Shown piece after piece: positions 47,866 to 58,818 of a stretch of DNA of 64,000 nucleotides. The notes beneath the pieces are model-generated. The model ran no database searches, had not been told where the DNA came from, and was given only the letters and a program-made list of their open reading frames with translations. How positions within the stretch are numbered: position 1 is the stretch's first letter; every line of letters begins with the position of its first letter. The position numbers and the translations under genes are program-made. Source of the stretch: Grifola frondosa (Eukaryota; Basidiomycota; Agaricomycetes; Polyporales; Grifolaceae); NCBI GenBank assembly GCA_001683735.1, contig LUGG01000022.1, positions 744,001-808,000 of the forward strand. The letters are read 5' to 3'.

Positions 47866-49295
47866 CTAGTGGCTCAGCCACTCCGTGAAGGAGGTTGGAG
47901 CGGCAGAAATGTCCGTAATCATGGAAGTAAAAGCGGAATCGGGCTTCTCTTCCGGTTCATCACTCCAACTCCACGCCTCTTTAAGTTCTCCGCGAATAAG
48001 CGCCGTTGCGATGAACGACAAGATACAAGCCGGACTATTGCACATTAGCCATTGTACGAAGAGGAAGCCGCTAAATCAGTTCATACCTGAGATATAGCAA
48101 CGCAGGTTGAGCTTTCTTGAAGAAATGCATCACAAACATTGTGGTTCCTAGTCCAGCAACGTAGGCGAACAACGCTGCCCAAAAGTATGGGCGGGACGCA
48201 GAGGAGCGATGATAGTCGTATCGGAGCGCCAGGGCAATGAACATCCCCGGGATGACGATGTCGCCCAGCCCAAGCATCGTGAATCCTCGTTCGGTACTGA
48301 AAAACAGCGACTTGGGCCACAACAGTTTTATAGGCACGTCGAGGCTGGTAGCCACCTTAACCATCTGAAAACCCGTGAATATACAGCATAAAGGGAAAGG
48401 AATGCAACTGAACTTGCCACTTCGGTCCCGAACACCCACCAGACGTCGTAAAGGAAAAGGCCGCAGAGGAGCACGCAACCGGTCTTGAAGGAGTCGATCT
48501 TCAACAATGATAATGCATTGTGTGAGAACGAAAGGGCCAGGATATCAGTGAGGAGAGCAGATCGGCGAGTACTGCTAGTGCCGAATGTATAGAGAATAGA
48601 TGGGAGGGCGCCCAAAGGCATAAGATAAAGTGACGGCGTCCTCACGGAAAACGAGATAATTTCTAGCAGATAGAATTACAACCACACAACTTCATCGAAA
48701 TGAAAGTGCATACCTTTTGGACCTTTTAAAAACAGTAGTTGATACTTCTCGCATTGTTTCCAACGACTAAGTCCGACAACCCATCTGGAGAGTGATATCA
48801 AGGACTAGAGTTGGGAGAATTGAGCTAATTATCATCACAAATATCCCAAAGCATACCTTGCTCACGCTCCCTACCCCAGCGACAGTAAAGTACCATTGGA
48901 GCAGCCATGTTATCCATTCTCTACCGAAGTACTTGAGAACGAGGTATAGTCCAAACAGCACCACGGAGCCGATCTAAATGGCTGTTAGTCCCGGCCTGCG
49001 TAGTTCTCGCTTTGTTTCGTGACTCACTATGGGAAACAGGTACGCATCCGTTGAAGACAAGCGCTCCGTTTCTTCTTCTTCGTCGTCGTCTGTGTCGCTC
49101 GTCAGTTTCCCTTCTCCCTTCGATTTCGGGTTCTGCACAATCAAGTCACATAGGTCAGGAAGTGTAGCGCCAGAAATAATTCGTGAAACTGACAGGGAGA
49201 GACCCATATGATCCAGCATATATGGAGAAACTCGCCAACGTAAGTAGACCAGCATAGGACGACAACAAATCCCAGTCGGGACCAGTGACTGCCAT
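47866..49295 (-). CDS. Signal peptide peptidase (presenilin-type intramembrane aspartyl protease)
   Basis: Cleaves signal peptides and other type II membrane segments within the ER membrane. Start at 49295 gives MAVTGPDWDLLSSYAGLLTLASFSIYAGSYGSLP, then an acidic cytosolic loop (SDTDDDEEEETERLSS), several hydrophobic segments (SVVLFGLYLVLKYFG, WYFTVAGVGSVSK), and the family's catalytic motifs: YD in CGLFLYDVWWVFGTEV, GLGD in FTMLGLGDIVIPGMFIALALRYDY, and PALLYL near the end. The C-terminus continues SPACILSFIATALIRGELKEAWSWSDEPEE and stops at 47866-47868. Length and motif spacing fit the eukaryotic SPP group rather than presenilin. It is divergent from the SSU1-like gene at 49640. No frame problems were seen. 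Confidence 0.9.
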
Positions 49296-49639: not shown

Positions 49640-51194
49640 ATGACTGCCCTGGACGGTTCCAAATCGCTCAAGGACTGTATACGGTATGCAACCGTAGTTA
49701 CTAGCCTTCGGAAAATCGCATATAGACTTACTCTGACTTGGCTCAGCCATTTCACTCCTGCCTGGTTCGCTGTTATCATGGGTAGGTCCTTAAATTATTT
49801 ATTTTGATGGTAATGAGTTTGTGCGTCGTCACCAACGCAAACCAGGAGTCGTCCCCTGCCTTCCTTTCGCGAATGAACGATGTAAATCCGTACTAATCAA
49901 AGTTCTGGATTATTGTAGGAACGGGCGCCATCTCTATCCTCTTTCATAATTTCCCCTACGCCTCAGACTCTATAGCGATGAAGATATTCACTTTTATATT
50001 CTTCTTTCTCAATCTCACGCTTTTCACACTGTTCAACGCACTCAGTATATCGCGCTACATCCTGTTTCCGGACGTGTGGCCGCTCATGATCCAGCATCCC
50101 GTACAAAGTCTGTATCTCGGGACATACCCCATGGGTGCCACAACTCTCATCAACATAGCGGTGGGTCTCATATATCAGCAATACGGATTCGGCGGGAAGG
50201 CCTTCCTATACGCTCTGTGGGGCTTCTGGTGGCTAGATGTCGCGATATCGTTCCTGTGCGCATTTGAGATGGTTCATGTCATGTACGTCTGTGGATCTCT
50301 AATTGCATGCACCCAGCTAATGAGCTCCTGTCTCAGGAAGACACGACACGACCATTCCCTGGGCAGAATGACTGCCATCTGGCTGCTTCCGGTAGTCACC
50401 CTTGTCGTTGCCTCGTCCACAGGCGGAGTCCTTGCGCAGGCGCTGGCACGGTTCTCCACATCCCACGCCCTTGTCACGCTGACAGTCTCGACCTTTATGG
50501 TCTCCATAGGTCTCGCGCTCGCATTCATGATCCTCACCATGTACCTCCTGCGGCTCATCGTTCACGGGCTCCCCCTGGTCCGAGCATCGTCAGCGTCTTC
50601 ATTCCACTCGGACCCATGGGACAAAGCGGCTTCTCCATCCTGCTGCTGGGGCAAGGATTCCAGTCCCTCTTGCCTCTTGATTACGGCACCTCCAGCGTAT
50701 TGCGGTATCCACACGTCGGCGAGGTCATCAACGTCCTCTGCACTTGTGCAGCGGTCGTGTTGTGGTCGCTTGCGACAATGTGGTTATTCTATGCGCTCCT
50801 GGCCGTGCAGGAGGTCCTGCGCCAGACGCGGTTTCCGTTCAAGTTACCATTCTGGGGACTGATCTTCCCAAACGTACGTCGACCTATTTGTCGCACTCAT
50901 GACAGTGATTCTAACAGCATTCCCTACTCTCAGGGTGTCTATGCCAACCTGACCATCCAGCTATACCGCACCTTCGATGCTGAATTTTTCCGCGTTTGGG
51001 GTGCTATCTACTCTGTTGCGACCTTGATCCTATGGATTGTCGTATTTAGTCGGACAATAGCACTTGTACGGAACGGTGCCATCTTTGAGGCTCCATGTGT
51101 GGAGGACATCGACATGGCGCGAGGGATAGAGAAACGCCTCGCTGATAACTGCACTCCTTCCAGTGGACGGAGCAGTCGCTGTCATAACTCGTGA
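49640..51194 (+). CDS. SSU1-type sulfite efflux transporter 1 (TDT/SLAC1 family)
   Basis: Ten-helix plasma-membrane transporter family (PF03595) that in fungi includes the sulfite pump Ssu1; malate and nitrate channels are relatives. Start ATG at 49640 (MTALDGSKSLKDCIR). An intron (49684-49747) joins in phase to HFTPAWFAVIMGTGAISILFHNFPY, followed by LFPDVWPLMIQHPVQSLYLGTYPMGATTLINIAVGL, ALWGFWWLDVAISFLCAFEMVHVM, MTAIWLLPVVTLVVASSTGG, then after a frame shift PSIVSVFIPLGPMGQSGFS, FPFKLPFWGLIFPNGVYANLTIQL and LILWIVVFSRTIALV. One C must be added to the CCCCC run at 50571-50575 (HGLP-PGPS). The paralog at 53625 is open through this exact point, so the break is a local change or a sequence error. 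Ends at TGA 51192-51194. Confidence 0.8.
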
Positions 51195-51574
51195 ATGGTT
51201 CGTTGCTACAGCTCACACTCGAAATATCAGCATATTACTGACACTTCTCCACTTCTCAAGTAGCATGATTTCTTGAACAACGTATGGCGACTCGCACTAT
51301 TGTATACCGCAACACTTCGACAATTGAAGATGTTCATGCACACATGCCGCTCGCACGGAAGGCCGCGTCCTTCCGAACATCCTGCGGCGTTACGCAACTC
51401 GAATTGACAACGCCGAATAGAGTTTCGAGAAGGCATATGGAGAAGAGAGGAAAGGGATCACACGCTGGGAACCCCTCTATCTCCGCTCACTTGCTGGTCG
51501 TCGGATATCCGAATAGATAATTGATACCAGGTCCAGTCCGATACGCACATGACTTACATAACGTACAATGCTGT
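51195..51574. other. Convergent intergenic region
   Basis: 380 bases between the 3' ends of the first SSU1-like gene and the persulfide dioxygenase gene, so it should hold both terminators. An open plus-strand frame at 51284-51520 has no recognised family. Confidence 0.4.
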
Positions 51575-52851
51575 TCACAGCAGGGCGACGATCTGTGGGT
51601 CCACCTTCACCGGCGTCATCAAGAACAACCGTCCCTGCGCGTCACGCGGAGGCAGCTTCCCTGCCCTGACATTCACCTGCAGCGCGGGATGCAGGAGCCT
51701 CGGCGCGCCCAGGACGGCATCGCGATCATGCCGCCACTGCGTGAACGATGTTTCCTCCGTGCCGTCTTTCATGTGCTTGTTGCTCGCGCGCTGCTCGGCA
51801 ACGGTGGCACTGCAGGAGGGACTGCGATCTTCTGGGTAGTCATGCCCCACAAACAGGCGGTGGTCCTCCGGGAACGAGAGCAGACGCTGCATGGACTGGG
51901 ATTGCAAGGGTAAGACAAGAACAGCAACGACTGCAATGCGGAATGCGTACGGAGTATAGATGTTTGACACTCCCTCCAGGGAAATCTGCACGGGCGGAGC
52001 CGACATCGGGCTTTTGATCATCACCGTCAGAGCCGCCAGAAAATTTTGAGCGCGCAAACAACGCTCAATCACAGCGCTCACATTAAAGATTGAGTCACCG
52101 GTGAACACGGCCTTGCCCATGACGTATCCAAGATGGTCCGGCGTGTGTCCAGGCAGATGCATCACCCGGCACGAGATATCGCCTAACTTGAACTCTTCGT
52201 CGTCCTTGAGGAATATGTCGAAGGTGTTCGCAAAGGCAGCGTGGTCAAAGCCGTAGATCGGCGCAAACGTCTGTTGAACCTGTAAGATCTTCTCGCCAAT
52301 GCAAACTGCGACATCCCCGCCCAACTGTTGCTTCAAGTACTGGGCAGCAGTAAGATGATCCGCGTGTGCATGGGTCTCGCTAGGGATTTGTCAAATCTCT
52401 GTTCCTCTGTATGAAGATAGATGACATACAGAATACGACGGACAGATATGTTATTATGTTCCATAAACGCAAGAAGCCCATCCGCTGTGCTGGTAGAGAC
52501 CTTGCCCGAACTGGGGTCGTAATCCAAGACAGGATCGATCACGACCGCCTCGAGTGTGCGTGGATCAACGGCAACGTACTGCCAGGTTGAGGTCTCTTTC
52601 TCAAAGAAGCCATAGACGGTGGGCGTGATGGCATCCGAGCTGTCATATCTCTGCGATGGTTCCGCGGGAGGGACCTTCGTTAAGAACTTGGAACAGTTGC
52701 TGGGGGCGACAGACGTAGACGGGATTGGAGCGGTGTTTATCGGACGGGACATGACGGATAGACGGAGTAATGTTAGACGCGTAGAGGGGTACGTAAAACA
52801 GACGGAGAAGGATGCAGAGCGAAGGACGGGGTGTCGGAGTCGTCCTAGCAT
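51575..52851 (-). CDS. ETHE1-like persulfide dioxygenase (metallo-beta-lactamase fold), mitochondrial
   Basis: Predicted non-haem iron enzyme oxidising glutathione persulfide with O2 to sulfite, the step after sulfide:quinone oxidoreductase in mitochondrial sulfide removal. Start at 52851 gives an Arg/Ser/Leu-rich presequence without acidic residues (MLGRLRHPVLRSASFSVCF), then VYGFFEKETSTWQYVAVDP, AVVIDPVLDYDPSSGK and, across an intron, the metal-binding motif ETHAHADHLTAA. Next come RVMHLPGHTPDHLGYVMGKAVFTGDSIF, PDVGSARADFPGGSVKHLYS, PEDHRLFVGHDYPEDR, TVAEQRASNKHMKDG and PALQVNVRAGKLPPRD. The DVG-AR-DFPGG block is characteristic of the ETHE1/Blh group rather than glyoxalase II. TGA at 51575-51577. 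It sits between two sulfite-exporter-like genes. The substrate has not been tested here; it is inferred from family. Confidence 0.85.
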
Positions 52852-53624
52852 GAATTTACGCCAAATTTATACAGCGGTGACGAAGGACGATAGCTGACAG
52901 GGAGAAATATTGGTGCTGCATGTCTCCCGTGACCTTTATAAACGCGTTGAGTAAGAAGGGCCAAGGAGGAGCACGAGTGGTTCAGCATTCCGAATTCATG
53001 CAAGCCGAATTCCGAATACTACAGGGGTGCACATAGGATGCAAGGAATCCTCCCATTCAAGGAGAGCGGGATGATTCGGCTGACCGAAGTAACAATCATA
53101 CGAGCTTCGGGAAACGTACAATGGAGACTGGCAGGTGTGCATGAGGGAGCGGAAGGGACAGCGGAGATGCACAAAAATCGAAGTTAAGAGGAGTGTGACA
53201 CGTGACGCCGACATGAGATCCGTGCGAGGTGGTGGCTGACAACGATGACCAGGCTTGTGGCACAAGACGGGGATGGTGATGCAGGTAATTCGGAATTCAT
53301 GTTCTGGAGTGTTGAGCAGTCTGACGTTTCACAGCCTCCTTTGATCCCACCGTGCATACTCGAGACCGTTCATTGGAAGGTCCATCCACCTGCCGCCCGC
53401 TCCGAAGCTGTAATTCGGAATTCGCTAAATAGGCGCCCTTCACATTAACCTGACCCACCTCCATGCCTGTCCGGTTCGCTCGCTTTAGCAGTTTCATCGC
53501 TGTTCTATCTTTCTCAAGGACGCCCGCGGCAAGATAGCATCGTATAAAGTCCTTAGACGGTTATACCCGCAGTTGATTCGTGTCTTGTCACCCCTCAGTC
53601 CATCGCGCTCGCGACCGCTCAAAC
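52852..53624. promoter_or_regulatory. Shared promoter region, dioxygenase / SSU1-like 2, with ATTCCGAAT sites
   Basis: 773 bases between the divergent start codons of the dioxygenase and the second SSU1-like gene. Four copies of ATTCCGAAT (either strand) occur: 52987-52997, 53007-53018, 53286-53298 and 53411-53423. The last two are the identical 13-mer TAATTCGGAATTC, 125 bases apart. The motif is partly palindromic (GAATTCCGAATT). I do not know the factor; a sulfur- or stress-responsive regulator is a guess from context. Confidence 0.5.
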
Positions 53625-55159
53625 ATGTCTCCGCCCCTAATCCAACCCCATTCAGACTGGAAGAGCTGGAGAGAACGCATTCGGTGAGCCGACTTCATAT
53701 TTTATTGGACCGCACAATTTTCTCAATTTTTCTCTGCAGGCATTTTACGTGGGCATGGCATGCTGTCATCATGGGGACAGGAGTCGTCTCCGCCTTGTTG
53801 CACAACTTTCCCTATCATAACGAAAGCCTTGGACTCAAGATTACAGCCGTTGTTTTTTTCCTGCTCAATCTTGTCCTCTTCGTGTTTGTGTGCACTTGCA
53901 CTATCCTGCGCTATGCGTTATATCCTGAGGTCAGTGTTTTGATGTTGAGTGGCATACATCTCCATGTCTCACTCCGGCGTTGTGTACAGATATGGCCATT
54001 GATGATAGTACATCCGGCCGCGAGCCTCTTTGTTGGTTGTTTTCCTATGGGTGCGGCGACACTCATAAATGCCGGCTTGGTGCGTATTCGTCAGGAAAAC
54101 AATGGTTTATCATTCAGCTGAACGTGCTTTTGTGTACTCAGGCAATTAATCAAGATTGGGGTTTTGGGGGTAATGGCTTCCTGTACACGTTGTGGGGTTT
54201 CTGGTGGCTCGACTCAATAGTGTCATACATCATCGCCTTCGGAATGATTTACACCATGTGAGTGTGCTTATGTCGCTCACATTCTCACGCCCTGATTTGC
54301 TCCCACCAGGATGGTTCGACAGGACCACTCGATATCCCAGATGACTGCAGTTTGGCTTTTACCCGTTGTCACACTCATCGTCGCATCATCCTCTGGCGGC
54401 CTTTTGTCTAATGCTCTACGGTCTCACTCGACGACCCTTGCGCTGCTTACTTCAGGGTTCTCCTTCACCATGGTGATAATTGGATTATCCTTCGCCCTCA
54501 TGATGATCACAGTTTACCTCCTTCGGCTCATCATCCACGGCCCGCCAGACCCCTCTCTCATCCTCTCTGCATTCATCACTCTCGGTCCTCTCGGACAAGG
54601 TGGATATTCTTTGCTTGTGAACGGGCAGGACCTCTCTGAGCTCCTTCCGCTGCACATCGGGAATGACTTCCCTCAGGCAGCGCTTGCAGGCCAGATGATT
54701 TTCGCGGGCTGCTTCTGCGGCGCGTACATACTGTGGTCGATGGGCATCGCATGGATACTCATTGCATGCTACTCTATCTTCCATGTTCGCGCGAGCACGA
54801 AGTTTCCATTTACCATGAGCTACTGGGGCCTTATTTTCCCGAATGGGGTGTTTGCGCTGTTGTGTGTGCAGCTCGCAAAAGTGCTCGACAGCCCGTTCTT
54901 CCGAGCATTTGCGGCCGCGTGGTCTTGTGAGTGGTGGGTTTTTCTCCCGATAACAAACTCTTCCTCACATACACTTTCTCTAGGCATCGTCTTCATTCTG
55001 TGGCTCTTCGTCTTCACCCGGAGTATACCGTCATTCATTGATGGCTCGCTGTTCAAGGCGCCCTACGTACCCGACGCACCACCTGCACCGTGTTTACAAG
55101 TGTATGACGCCGAGGCCGATAAGGTGGCAAGCGATACAACAGTGTTCAATATTTCATGA
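53625..55159 (+). CDS. SSU1-type sulfite efflux transporter 2 (TDT/SLAC1 family)
   Basis: Paralog of the gene at 49640 and uninterrupted after splicing. Start ATG at 53625 (MSPPLIQPHSDWKSWRERIR), then HFTWAWHAVIMGTGVVSALLHNFPY, KITAVVFFLLNLVLFVFVC, IWPLMIVHPAASLFVGCFPMGAATLINAGL, FLYTLWGFWWLDSIVSYIIAFGMIYTM, MTAVWLLPVVTLIVASSSGG, LLRLIIHGPPDPSLILSAFITLGPLGQGGYS, ILWSMGIAWILIACYSIF, FPFTMSYWGLIFPNGVFALLCVQL and VFILWLFVFTRSIPSFIDG, and a stop at 55157-55159. Ten hydrophobic segments fit the family. Intron positions differ partly from the first paralog (no intron inside the VIMGTG motif here). It shares a promoter region with the dioxygenase. The sulfite substrate is inferred from similarity and context; malate or another anion remains possible. 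Confidence 0.82.
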
Positions 55160-55499: not shown

Positions 55500-58400
55500 A
55501 TGCCTAACCGCTCCGACTACCAGCCACTAGCACAGGACGCAGACGATGCGGAGTCCGACGTCGGAGAGGGGCTGCCGCAGCCACCGCAACCGACACGCAG
55601 TCGGCGGTCACAGCGGCCAGTGCACATTGATCTCAGCAAGCTGGACAGCGCGTTCAAGAGGTGCGTCATATGTCTCTCCTATGACTCGAGGACTGTATTC
55701 AGTGGGGAAACAGGTGGACGGAGTCCATTGCACAGAAGGTGAAGCGCAAGAAGAAGGTCGAGGACAACTCGCGGAAGGAGATATGGCGGAGCGTCTTCGA
55801 TCCTCCCATCGCTGCGCTCACTTCTGAAAGCGGTACGGTACGCTGCATCCCGCTCATGTTGTCTTGCTCGCCGTTTGACGGCGTGTGCCTGTTGCAGGTC
55901 AAGACCCTGGACCATAAGCCGCAGATGACCCAGGCCGACTATGACAAGTAAGTGCTGGTCTCGCGTAATATGCGGCTGGTCTGACTGACGAGACAAGAAT
56001 TATTCAAGAAGTCAAAGACGCCATTGCCGAGGGTATTCACCCGAAGATGATCCTCAAGGGGTCGTCTGGGTCATATTTCGCGCGAGCGAAGGTTGAGGGC
56101 CTGTGCAGACGGTTGCGTGAGTCATCTTCGATATCTATTTTGCTACCAATTATTAAGAATCTCCTAGCGTGTTTAAGCCGAAAGATGAAGAGCCGTATGG
56201 CAGGCTTAATCCCAAGGTTAGTGGCAAGATCTCCGATCATTTCAATATTTTGACTCTCAGATATAGACCACCAAATGGCTTCATAGGCAGTTCCGGTGGA
56301 TAATTCCCTTCGGTCGTGCATGCCTGATTCCCAATCTCAGGTGCCTATTTATCCATCATATTACTTCTGATATCTAACACTGAGATGTCCAGTTATATAT
56401 CCGAAGCTGCGGCTTCCCTACTTGATGACCGATTAGAGTTGAACATTGTCCCTAAAACGCAGCTCGTTTCGTTATCAAGTCCAGTAGGTTTAGGTTTATT
56501 TTCTCCTTTACCCGAACGACCTTCTGATTATATCGCAAGGCGTTTTTCTACGATTGGCTTGACAGAAATGCAGCCAAGAAAGGGAAACCGCTTCCAGATA
56601 AGATCGGCAGCATGCAATATTTCCTTCACGGTTATACTGGTGTGTCTTTTCGTCTAATTTGTTTTCGAGTTATTTATTTCGGTATTTCATAGACGCGTCC
56701 GACTTCCTGCGAAAGCACCCGTGGCCGCGGTCGCGCCATTTCGGACACTTTTGATGACTCTAGTCATAGGAAGGGGAGTTTCTACAAGAAATTCCTGAGT
56801 ACTTTGAAGATTGTATGCGGTAAGACTGGCGAGGAAGAATACATGTATGATGAGGACGACCGCGAAGATGAGAGGGTCCTCTTCGATGCCTCGGAAAGTC
56901 GCTCTGGCGATCCGTTTTATTGGTCACCGGCTCTACAAGATAATTTCCGGGAAGAGTTAGAGAAGTGTGTCAATCTTTGTATTCGTAATTCTCTCAAATT
57001 GACCGATACTTCTCCTAGGTTGGTCATATTGGGTGAGTTCTCATGGTTATGTGATTTAGCTATATGTCCCTTCCCTTCTCATTTGTCGAATAGACTATCT
57101 GATGCTAAACACGGACCGCGGTGCGGACAACTATATGATCAAGTACTGCGAATCCGACCATGGAAAGTCCCTTGTTGACGTCGCGCCTTCACGATCATCA
57201 CGACTGGAGATGCCAATGATGACAGAACTTCGACGAACAGACTCTTCGACGAGAAGCCCGCAGCTCGGCGCGGGCCCGTCGATGATGCTACCCACGAATT
57301 CCCAATACGGCTCCTCGAGCACTAATCTTCCGTATACCAAGCAACCACATATCCATATAGCCGCCATAGATAATTCCCTTTCCTTCCCGCACGAGCACCC
57401 CCGCGGTTGGCGCTCGTACACGTATGGCTGGCTGTTCCTTCCGGTCACAATAATTGGTCGCCCGTTTAGCCAGAAGACGCGCGACCATTTCCTGCCTTTG
57501 TTGACATCGAAGTCATGGTGGGCGGATACCACATATGAGTTGCGAAAGCTGTTTGCTGTAGACCCCGACTTCCACCCGAAGATGTTCAACGTAAGTATGA
57601 CAATATGTAGTCAATACAAATTCCTTATTGTTTTTTTAGCGGCAACTGGCAGTTATCAAGGGGCAAGCGTGGAACATCGTGCAGTCATTAAAACATGGGG
57701 TATGTCATTTTGTTCTTGTCGTCATACGTAGAAGTACTCAGTTCTCATTTTAGGATGAAGGTAGGAAGAGCCACACTCTCAAAGTTATATTACTAACAGT
57801 GGACCAGGCCCTTTGGAGCTGACACGCAGAATCAAAGTTCTCGTATGGAACGAAGAGGTGGAAATCTCCGATGAAGTGCTCCCTGAGATGACCAACGGCG
57901 CCATCGCACAGCATCCCGCATCTTCTCCTCACGCATCCATCAACACTATGCCGCTCCCCGCCCAGCCGAAACGCAAGCGCAGCCAGAGCGCAAGCCACAT
58001 GTCCGACTTCCCACCTCCCATGCGGCGGTTGTCCACGGACCTCTCAGGCGTGACGCGTCCCGTGTCCTTCTCGGCCAAGTTCCACCGCGTGCACCCGGCG
58101 ACGACAGGCGTTACGGTGCTCGAGCACATGGAGCGCCTCGACGCTGTCGAAGCCGGGCTGAAGCGCATCGGGGTGGAGGAGTCCGCGGAGGAGGAGGAGG
58201 AACAGGACGTGGGCGAGGTCTCGTACGCGAAAGTGCCTTCATCCGCCCCCGCTGCTTCGTCAGTGTTTTCGTCGCCGGCGATATCGAGGGAGCAGTCTGG
58301 AGAGGCGCTGTCTCCCCACGCGGTTTCGGATCGCCTGCCAGCAGTGCCGGAGGACGCCATGTCGTTGTCGATGTCGATGACGGAGGAGGATCTGGTCGCG

Positions 58401-58526
58401 ATGTCCAAGTCTACGTCGCAGCTTGAGGCACCGCACTCTGCGTTGCACACGCGCTGGGGGAGCCATCACATTCCCGACGAGCGGCCCAGCCTAGACTGGA
58501 TGCAGGCTGATTCGACTGAGAGTTGA
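55500..58526 (+). CDS. LSB6: Type II phosphatidylinositol 4-kinase
   Basis: Makes phosphatidylinositol 4-phosphate on Golgi, endosome and vacuole membranes. Start ATG at 55500 (MPNRSDYQPLAQDADDAESDVGEG). Kinase motifs across about ten short introns: LKGSSGSYFARAKVEG (nucleotide loop), VFKPKDEEPYGRLNPK (ATP-binding Lys), FGRACLIPNL, SYISEAAASLLDDRLELNIVPKT, FFYDWLDR, KIGSMQYFLHGYTDASDFLRKHPWP, LVILDYLMLNTDRGADNYMIKYC (catalytic loop with DRGADN), and IHIAAIDNSLSFPHEHPRGWRSYTYGWLFLP (metal-binding IDN). A long Ser/Pro/Glu-rich C-terminal extension (57900-58500), longer than in yeast Lsb6, ends with TGA at 58524-58526. The usual palmitoylated Cys-rich CCPCC motif is not evident between KWLHRQ and FGRAC, so membrane binding may differ. 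Confidence 0.92.
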
Positions 58527-58818
58527 AGATGAGGACGGTGATAGTAGAGGTAAGCTTTTGTTGCGCTGGCACTCCACATCGGTATACTGAGTCCTGTCGT
58601 ACAGCGCTTGGAGACGGTCGACGCGAAGCCATTTTGTTCGTGCTGGTGATCGTGGCTGCGGACATTGTGAGGCATTCGCTATCCTTCTGCTTTCTAAATG
58701 CTGTCTTTTTGGAGTATTTAACGAAGAGGCATATGTAATATTCTGCGACGGCTTCATGACATATTATACAGATCAATAGAATGCATTTGTGCTACAAGCA
58801 TTGTTTGTAGGAAATAGA

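What the first reader, a model, noticed from the sequence alone, without database searches (positions are those of the whole stretch)
49640..55159. Candidate sulfide detoxification cluster: two SSU1-like sulfite exporters around a mitochondrial persulfide dioxygenase
Seen: two paralogous TDT-family genes flank a metallo-beta-lactamase gene with ETHE1/Blh motifs (ETHAHADH, DVGSARADFPGG) and a mitochondrial-type presequence. Known: persulfide dioxygenases make sulfite from glutathione persulfide; fungal Ssu1 exports sulfite; in bacteria the BigR operon pairs the ETHE1-like Blh with a TauE/SafE sulfite exporter. Inference: this fungal locus couples production and export of toxic sulfite, a eukaryotic parallel to the bacterial pairing. 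I have not seen this arrangement described for basidiomycetes.
Basis: partly seen in the sequence, partly recalled or inferred. Interest (0 to 1): 0.78.

Follow-up and report, generated by a model that had tools for sequence, protein, structure and literature searches.

The report
Fungal sulfide-detoxification cluster and regulon
In the maitake mushroom, a gene for an enzyme that probably turns a toxic sulfide product into sulfite lies between two genes that look like sulfite export pumps, and a short DNA word in its promoter recurs beside other genes expected in the same detoxification route, which suggests a coordinated sulfide response in mushroom-forming fungi.

Summary
The window is Grifola frondosa. 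Two PF03595 (SLAC1/TDT) genes, probably Ssu1-type, flank a Blh-type persulfide dioxygenase (PDO-1). Its N-terminal extension looks like a mitochondrial presequence. The first transporter, TDT-A, has a broken frame in this assembly.

Linkage is conserved. A TDT and a PDO lie on contigs of equal length in 27 of 46 other species that have both in my lists (1.65 expected). Mycena and Favolaschia lack it (0 of 9). The A-B transporter tandem looks old (8 of 8 fused models read A then B). PDO-1 between A and B is probably derived.

New here: PDO-1 and TDT-B are divergent, and their 773-bp shared promoter holds four copies of ATTC[C/G]GAAT. Close pairs of this word occur at 5 places in 39 Mb (0.098 expected): this promoter, a second PDO promoter, an alternative-oxidase promoter, the 3' end of a bZIP gene, and upstream of an OXA1-like gene. 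I then predicted it for sulfide:quinone oxidoreductase, whose one gene found has it 96 bp before its ATG.

Best reading: a sulfide-oxidation, sulfite-export and respiratory-bypass regulon. Substrates, localisation, binding and co-expression are inferred.

The parts
49640..51194 (+). TDT-A, PF03595 transporter of the A clade (probably Ssu1-type), 5 exons, frame broken in exon 4
50565..50590 (+). approximate place of the frame break of TDT-A, at a run of C; assembly error or real
51575..52851 (-). PDO-1, Blh-type persulfide dioxygenase, 4 exons, 366 aa, with presequence-like residues 1-75
52852..53624 (.). 773-bp divergent promoter region shared by PDO-1 and TDT-B
52987..52995 (.). ATTC[C/G]GAAT site, 136 bp from the PDO-1 ATG
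53009..53017 (.). ATTC[C/G]GAAT site, 158 bp from the PDO-1 ATG; pair with the previous site
53288..53296 (.). ATTC[C/G]GAAT site, 337 bp from the TDT-B ATG
53413..53421 (.). ATTC[C/G]GAAT site, 212 bp from the TDT-B ATG
53625..55159 (+). TDT-B, intact PF03595 transporter of the B clade (probably Ssu1-type sulfite pump), 6 exons, 415 aa

Best explanation
The locus is part of a sulfide-detoxification module. Sulfide:quinone oxidoreductase (SQR, on contig C4) oxidises sulfide in mitochondria to a persulfide; PDO-1 and PDO-2 oxidise glutathione persulfide to sulfite; Ssu1-type transporters, at least TDT-B, export the sulfite. Alternative oxidase (AOX) keeps respiration going when sulfide blocks cytochrome oxidase. 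A factor that reads ATTC[C/G]GAAT, nearest site 96-212 bp upstream of the ATG, co-regulates SQR, PDO-1 with TDT-B, PDO-2 and one AOX gene. Shown: gene identities by homology, linkage in relatives, the divergent promoter, the distribution of the word in this genome. Inferred: substrates, localisation, binding by a factor, co-expression.
For: Homology: PDO; TDT; AOX; SQR. Linkage on contigs of equal length: any TDT with PDO in 27 of 46 other species against 1.65 expected; A with B in 30 of 35 others. Word: 4 sites in 773 bp (0.007 expected from 352 sites in the genome), close pairs at 5 places against 0.098 expected, reversed-word control 0. Two of the 5 are the places where I first saw the word; of the other 3, one is the promoter of an AOX gene and one a bZIP gene of the sulfur-regulator kind. 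The prediction for SQR was made before its locus was fetched, and held: 96 bp from the ATG, where chance is about 0.002 per 200 bp (352 sites in 39.06 Mb). Loci of TDT-C, two PF00174 genes, two GGT genes and 30 kb of flank (L015, L017, L018) have none. No CDO_I gene was found, so cysteine dioxygenase is not an evident other source of sulfite. The bacterial relatives of the enzyme also sit beside exporters and ArsR regulators.
Against: TDT-A has no site and a broken frame. The word was first noticed by eye. The C1 pair lies at the 3' end of a gene, not in a promoter. Of the 26 loci with the 11-mer I scanned ORFs of only some with Pfam, and 9 of those loci showed nothing linked to sulfur or respiration; the other single sites of the 352 were not examined. 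Conservation of the word in relatives could not be tested. Two PF00174 genes (sulfite oxidase or nitrate reductase, not resolved) may remove sulfite without export. Mycena and Favolaschia show no linkage (0 of 9), and 10 other species miss it. Ssu1 against Mae1 by profile is close. A mitochondrial product would still have to leave the mitochondrion before a plasma-membrane pump could act.
Confidence: 0.6

Rival explanations
1. The word marks a general mitochondrial or respiratory-stress regulon. AOX, OXA1-like, SQR and PDO products are all mitochondrial by inference, and the cluster responds to respiratory block as such, sulfide being one trigger.
For: Paired sites at AOX and an OXA1-like gene.
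Against: The word also stands before the TDT-B pump and close to two sulfur-type bZIP genes, which are not respiratory.
Confidence: 0.18
2. Linkage is only slow-changing gene order without function, and the word is a chance or clumped word.
For: Equal contig length says nothing about distance, and some contigs exceed 3 Mb; species are related and so not independent (several Trametes); Poisson counts ignore clumping; the motif was found after the fact.
Against: 27 of 46 against 1.65 expected, with contigs as short as 46.6 kb and 101 kb; the pair scan returned AOX and a bZIP gene without guidance; the SQR prediction held.
Confidence: 0.14
3. The two transporters carry another anion (malate or other dicarboxylate, nitrate, chloride) and their place beside PDO has no metabolic meaning.
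For: The PF03595 family holds several substrates; Mae1 and Ssu1 score almost alike against the A+B profile (129 and 136 bits; 17 and 40 of 57 best hits).
Against: Loop signature GPx.Q as in recalled Ssu1 in 44 of 57, the GPPxF of recalled Mae1 and of TDT-C in 0 of 57; the tree puts recalled Mae1 and TDT-C on one side and A, B and recalled Ssu1 on the other, with long branches; repeated linkage with PDO.
Confidence: 0.1

Closest known systems
Bacterial bigR operon (BigR, Blh, TauE-like sulfite transporter) of Xylella and Agrobacterium; PMC5823870, abstract and passages
   Same: Blh-type dioxygenase with a sulfite exporter under shared control; supports respiration under sulfide
   Different: Eukaryote; Blh sulfurtransferase half missing; exporter from an unrelated family (SLAC1/TDT, not TauE); no ArsR repressor; separate genes with a divergent promoter; wider set with SQR and AOX by shared word
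Candida albicans Zcf2 - CDG1 - SSU1 circuit; PMC13170222, passages
   Same: A fungal factor raises a sulfite-producing dioxygenase and the Ssu1 pump together
   Different: There the source is cysteine dioxygenase; no CDO_I gene was found here; there the circuit is not a gene cluster as far as the passages say
Bacterial persulfide dioxygenases of the 4ysk/4ysl, 4efz and 9g8t kind
   Same: Sequence over residues 76-356, metal motifs
   Different: N-terminal extension, introns, partner transporter family
Neurospora CYS-3 sulfur regulon; PMC8550094, passages
   Same: Sulfur genes under a bZIP factor; two bZIP genes of like basic region (likeness recalled) stand near the word here
   Different: The CYS-3 site is ATGRYRYCAT / ATBRCGCCATC, not ATTCSGAAT

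Membership tests
Blh/PDO-type persulfide dioxygenase | Metallo-beta-lactamase fold with HxHxDH, PGHTP and GD metal motifs | tested here: met
   invariant in 15 relatives
Blh/PDO-type persulfide dioxygenase | Closest to Blh dioxygenase domain and bacterial PDO rather than to glyoxalase II or ETHE1 | tested here: met
Blh (bifunctional) | N-terminal sulfurtransferase (BLH_phosphatase/DUF442) half | tested here: not met
   match only to model positions 132-421; not found in PDO-1
Persulfide dioxygenase | Oxygen-dependent oxidation of glutathione persulfide to sulfite | not testable with these tools
   needs enzyme assay
Ssu1 sulfite pump | PF03595 fold family | tested here: met
Ssu1 sulfite pump | Groups with Ssu1 and not with Mae1 | tested here: inconclusive
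Ssu1 sulfite pump | Sulfite efflux | not testable with these tools
   needs transport assay
bigR operon | ArsR-type repressor and TauE exporter beside Blh | tested here: not met
   the neighbours are TDT genes, a signal peptide peptidase and a PI4-kinase-like gene; works like it, is not a member
CYS-3 regulon | ATGRYRYCAT site in the shared promoter | not tested
   only the difference between the published site and ATTCSGAAT was noted; I did not scan for ATGRYRYCAT
Functional gene cluster | Linkage kept across species more often than expected | tested here: met
   27 of 46 other species, 1.65 expected; 0 of 9 in Mycena/Favolaschia
Functional gene cluster | Co-expression | not testable with these tools
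   no expression data

The most novel reading that the evidence does not exclude
Mushroom-forming fungi have a dedicated sulfide-response regulon read through a 9-base pseudo-palindrome, ATTC[C/G]GAAT, which joins SQR, two persulfide dioxygenases, an Ssu1-type sulfite pump, alternative oxidase and sulfur-type bZIP genes in one sulfide-oxidation and respiratory-bypass programme, a convergent eukaryotic counterpart of the bacterial bigR system.
Probability: 0.42. Interest if true: 0.78.

Novelty: new variant of a known kind. Interest (0 to 1): 0.6.

Why it matters
It would show that fungi, like bacteria, pair a Blh-type persulfide dioxygenase with a sulfite pump, but with an unrelated transporter family and with a regulatory word that also takes in sulfide oxidation and an oxidase expected to tolerate sulfide. 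The model makes direct predictions for expression under sulfide, for promoter mutation and for sulfite excretion. None of the listings from my ten paper searches described this arrangement; the library lacks most subscription journals.

Tried and rejected
Rejected: (1) TDT-A with a real extra intron: the 53-nt intron implied by database model P0241 would delete a segment present in the orthologues I read. (2) ETHE1 proper: 4chl ranks far below the bacterial enzymes. (3) A known CYS-3 site as the shared word: the published site differs. (4) CACGTG and a MET31-like word: CACGTG occurs once in the shared promoter and 12 times in the window, AAACTGTGG once in the window and not in the promoter; no enrichment test was run. 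(5) Gamma-glutamyltransferase and GST near PDO-2 as cluster members: no site in the GGT loci or in L017; their linkage in relatives was not tested.

Dead ends: PDB sequence search with TDT-B gave chance hits only; pair scan with gaps of 31-61 gave 0; first genome-contig scan found nothing; a DOI that I recalled for the paper on two bacterial PDOs is not held. SSU1 and ETHE1 as whole words in one paper: 0.

Weak points of the linkage count: the species tables were typed by hand from the top-120 lists; contig identity is judged by equal length; protein clusters with several members can show another strain's contig, so misses may be false (Abortiporus TDT-A, Rhodofomes, Schizophyllum commune, Lentinula raphanica). 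Rows without a species name or without a contig (for example Ganoderma boninense, the Moniliophthora TDT) and rows of groups with no partner in the lists were left out. The A and B profiles were built from 19 + 19 members of the lists that they then sorted; one fragment, P0075, has a margin of only 4 bits. The tally of neighbours of bacterial homologues used 89 of 143 ORFs from 36 of 80 loci, and 25 of 81 families were shown.
Full report
OBSERVATION. The window lies in a 39.06-Mb assembly (C19:744001-808000), identified as Grifola frondosa by database proteins on a contig of the same length. The three genes are real: TDT-A (+, 49640-51194), PDO-1 (-, 52851-51575), TDT-B (+, 53625-55159), with GT-AG introns. 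TDT-B covers PF03595 almost end to end. The frame of TDT-A breaks in exon 4, and the public model bridges it with a dubious intron; the break sits at a run of C, so an assembly error is possible. The genome search found three PF03595 genes: these two and one on C5 that has the Mae1-like loop. A second PDO, PDO-2, lies about 25 kb from PDO-1 on the same contig.

THE ENZYME. PDO-1 aligns from about residue 76 to 356 with 9g8t, 4ysk and 4efz (E 5.4e-78 to 5.6e-65); ETHE1 4chl is at 9.2e-14. 4ysk is, as I recall, the P. putida persulfide dioxygenase. The best NCBIfam model is the dioxygenase half of Blh; the other half is missing. Metal motifs are invariant in 15 relatives and present in PDO-1. 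The first 75 residues have no counterpart in the aligned PDB chains, and the first 60 hold 8 basic and no acidic residues: a mitochondrial presequence is likely, not shown.

THE TRANSPORTERS. A and B are split by one branch of the tree with support 100 (28 and 32 rows). Profiles made from 19 members of each sort 113 of 113 A-list proteins as A and 113 of 120 B-list proteins as B; the 7 exceptions are double-length models. Recalled Ssu1 falls on the A/B side; recalled Mae1 and the C5 gene fall together on the other, all three on long branches. By profile score the margin is small (136 against 129 bits; best reference Ssu1 for 40 of 57, Mae1 for 17 of 57); the loop signature is Ssu1-like in 44 of 57 and Mae1-like in 0 of 57. 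I call them probably Ssu1-type.

LINKAGE. From the top-120 lists of three searches, with equal contig length as the test (Grifola counted): A with B in 31 of 36 species, A with PDO in 20 of 28, B with PDO in 18 of 33, any TDT with PDO in 28 of 47; without Grifola the last is 27 of 46, against 1.65 expected from contig share of a 45-Mb genome. The species belong, as I recall, to Polyporales, Gloeophyllales, Corticiales and Agaricales. Misses are 9 of 9 in Mycena and Favolaschia and 10 of 38 elsewhere. Tight cases: Tricholomella locus tags D9615_002516 (PDO) and 002517 (TDT); Steccherinum A and PDO on one 46.6-kb contig; Trametes sanguinea A, B and PDO on one 101-kb contig. Counter-case: in T. 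cinnabarina A and B are scf184961.g6 and g7 while the PDO is scf184941.g32. Eight of eight double-length models read A then B with nothing between. So the A-B tandem is old and PDO-1 between them is probably derived. In the PDO tree PDO-2 is the short branch beside the Trametes type (support 84/49) and PDO-1 a longer, unresolved branch.

A SHARED PROMOTER WORD. PDO-1 and TDT-B are divergent over 773 bp. I noticed a repeated word there and before PDO-2; the 14 repeated 8-mers shared by the two promoters all overlap it. The 11-mer ATTCGGAATTC occurs 26 times in the genome, 3 of them in this promoter and 1 before PDO-2; the reversed word 9 times. The 9-base core ATTC[C/G]GAAT occurs 352 times, reversed 78. 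Two cores with a gap of 0-30 occur at 5 places, reversed 0, against 0.098 expected; with a gap of 31-61, 0. The five are: this promoter; PDO-2 (151 and 176 bp before the ATG); C10, before the second of two tandem AOX genes, the only AOX locus found (182, 437 and 450 bp); C1, at the 3' end of a bZIP gene with basic region NTAAS-ARFRIKKK; C5, about 140 and 156 bp before an OXA1-like gene, taking its first ATG in the open frame. Another bZIP gene of this kind, on C12, has one site 411 bp before its ATG. That this basic region is of CYS3/MetR type is recalled. I then asked whether SQR has the word: the one SQR gene found (PDB SQOR E 3.5e-47) has it 96 bp before its ATG. Loci fetched for other reasons (TDT-C, two PF00174 genes, two GGT genes, L015, L017, L018) have none.

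AGAINST. The word was found by eye first. Of the 26 loci with the 11-mer I scanned ORFs of part with Pfam; nine loci (L022, L026, L028, L032, L033, L034, L038, L043, L044) showed nothing linked to sulfur or respiration, L025 has an AP-1-like bZIP by eye only (no Pfam match), and eight were not scanned. The other single sites of the 352 were not examined. The C1 pair is not in a promoter. TDT-A has no site. Poisson ignores clumping. No fungal DNA of relatives was available. Two PF00174 genes may oxidise sulfite.

KNOWN SYSTEMS. Bacterial relatives of this enzyme sit near ArsR-type regulators (HTH_5 in 9 of 89 neighbour ORFs), SulP permeases (7), Blh phosphatase-like domain (5), DUF6691 (5), TauE (4), rhodanese (3); PF03595 is not among the 25 of 81 families shown. 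The bigR operon pairs Blh with a TauE-related exporter and supports respiration under sulfide (PMC5823870, abstract and passages). In C. albicans Zcf2 raises Cdg1 and Ssu1 together (PMC13170222, passages). Grifola gave no CDO_I hit in an exon-by-exon search. The case works like these two but is a member of neither.

VERDICT. The finding is real and goes further than its author could see: linkage in relatives, and a candidate cis-element that reaches other genes of the pathway. It remains a computational inference.

Noticed in passing
G000:C19:813033-815078 (L015): One of two gamma-glutamyltransferase genes of the genome lies between PDO-1 and PDO-2; no ATTCSGAAT site in its locus.
   Followed up: partly
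G000:C19:836547-837116 (L017:8547-9116): Glutathione S-transferase gene about 13 kb beyond PDO-2.
   Followed up: no
G000:C10:210708-214327 (L062, L065, L066): Two tandem alternative-oxidase genes, the only AOX locus found in the genome; three ATTCSGAAT sites lie between them.
   Followed up: partly
P0017, P0018, P0031, P0034, P0041, P0042, P0044, P0260: Eight database proteins of 648-716 aa are an A-type and a B-type transporter in one chain: annotation fusions of a tandem pair, or true double transporters.
   Followed up: partly
window 48074-48544, - strand, and neighbouring exons: Signal peptide peptidase (PF04258) gene that is divergent from TDT-A.
   Followed up: no
window 55500-58530, + strand: Gene after TDT-B with a weak PI3/PI4-kinase match, probably a type II PI4-kinase (below the curated cut-off).
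   Followed up: no
G000:C1:952390-952437 (L023): Two copies of the word lie in the open frame at the 3' end of a bZIP gene; why they are there is unexplained.
   Followed up: partly
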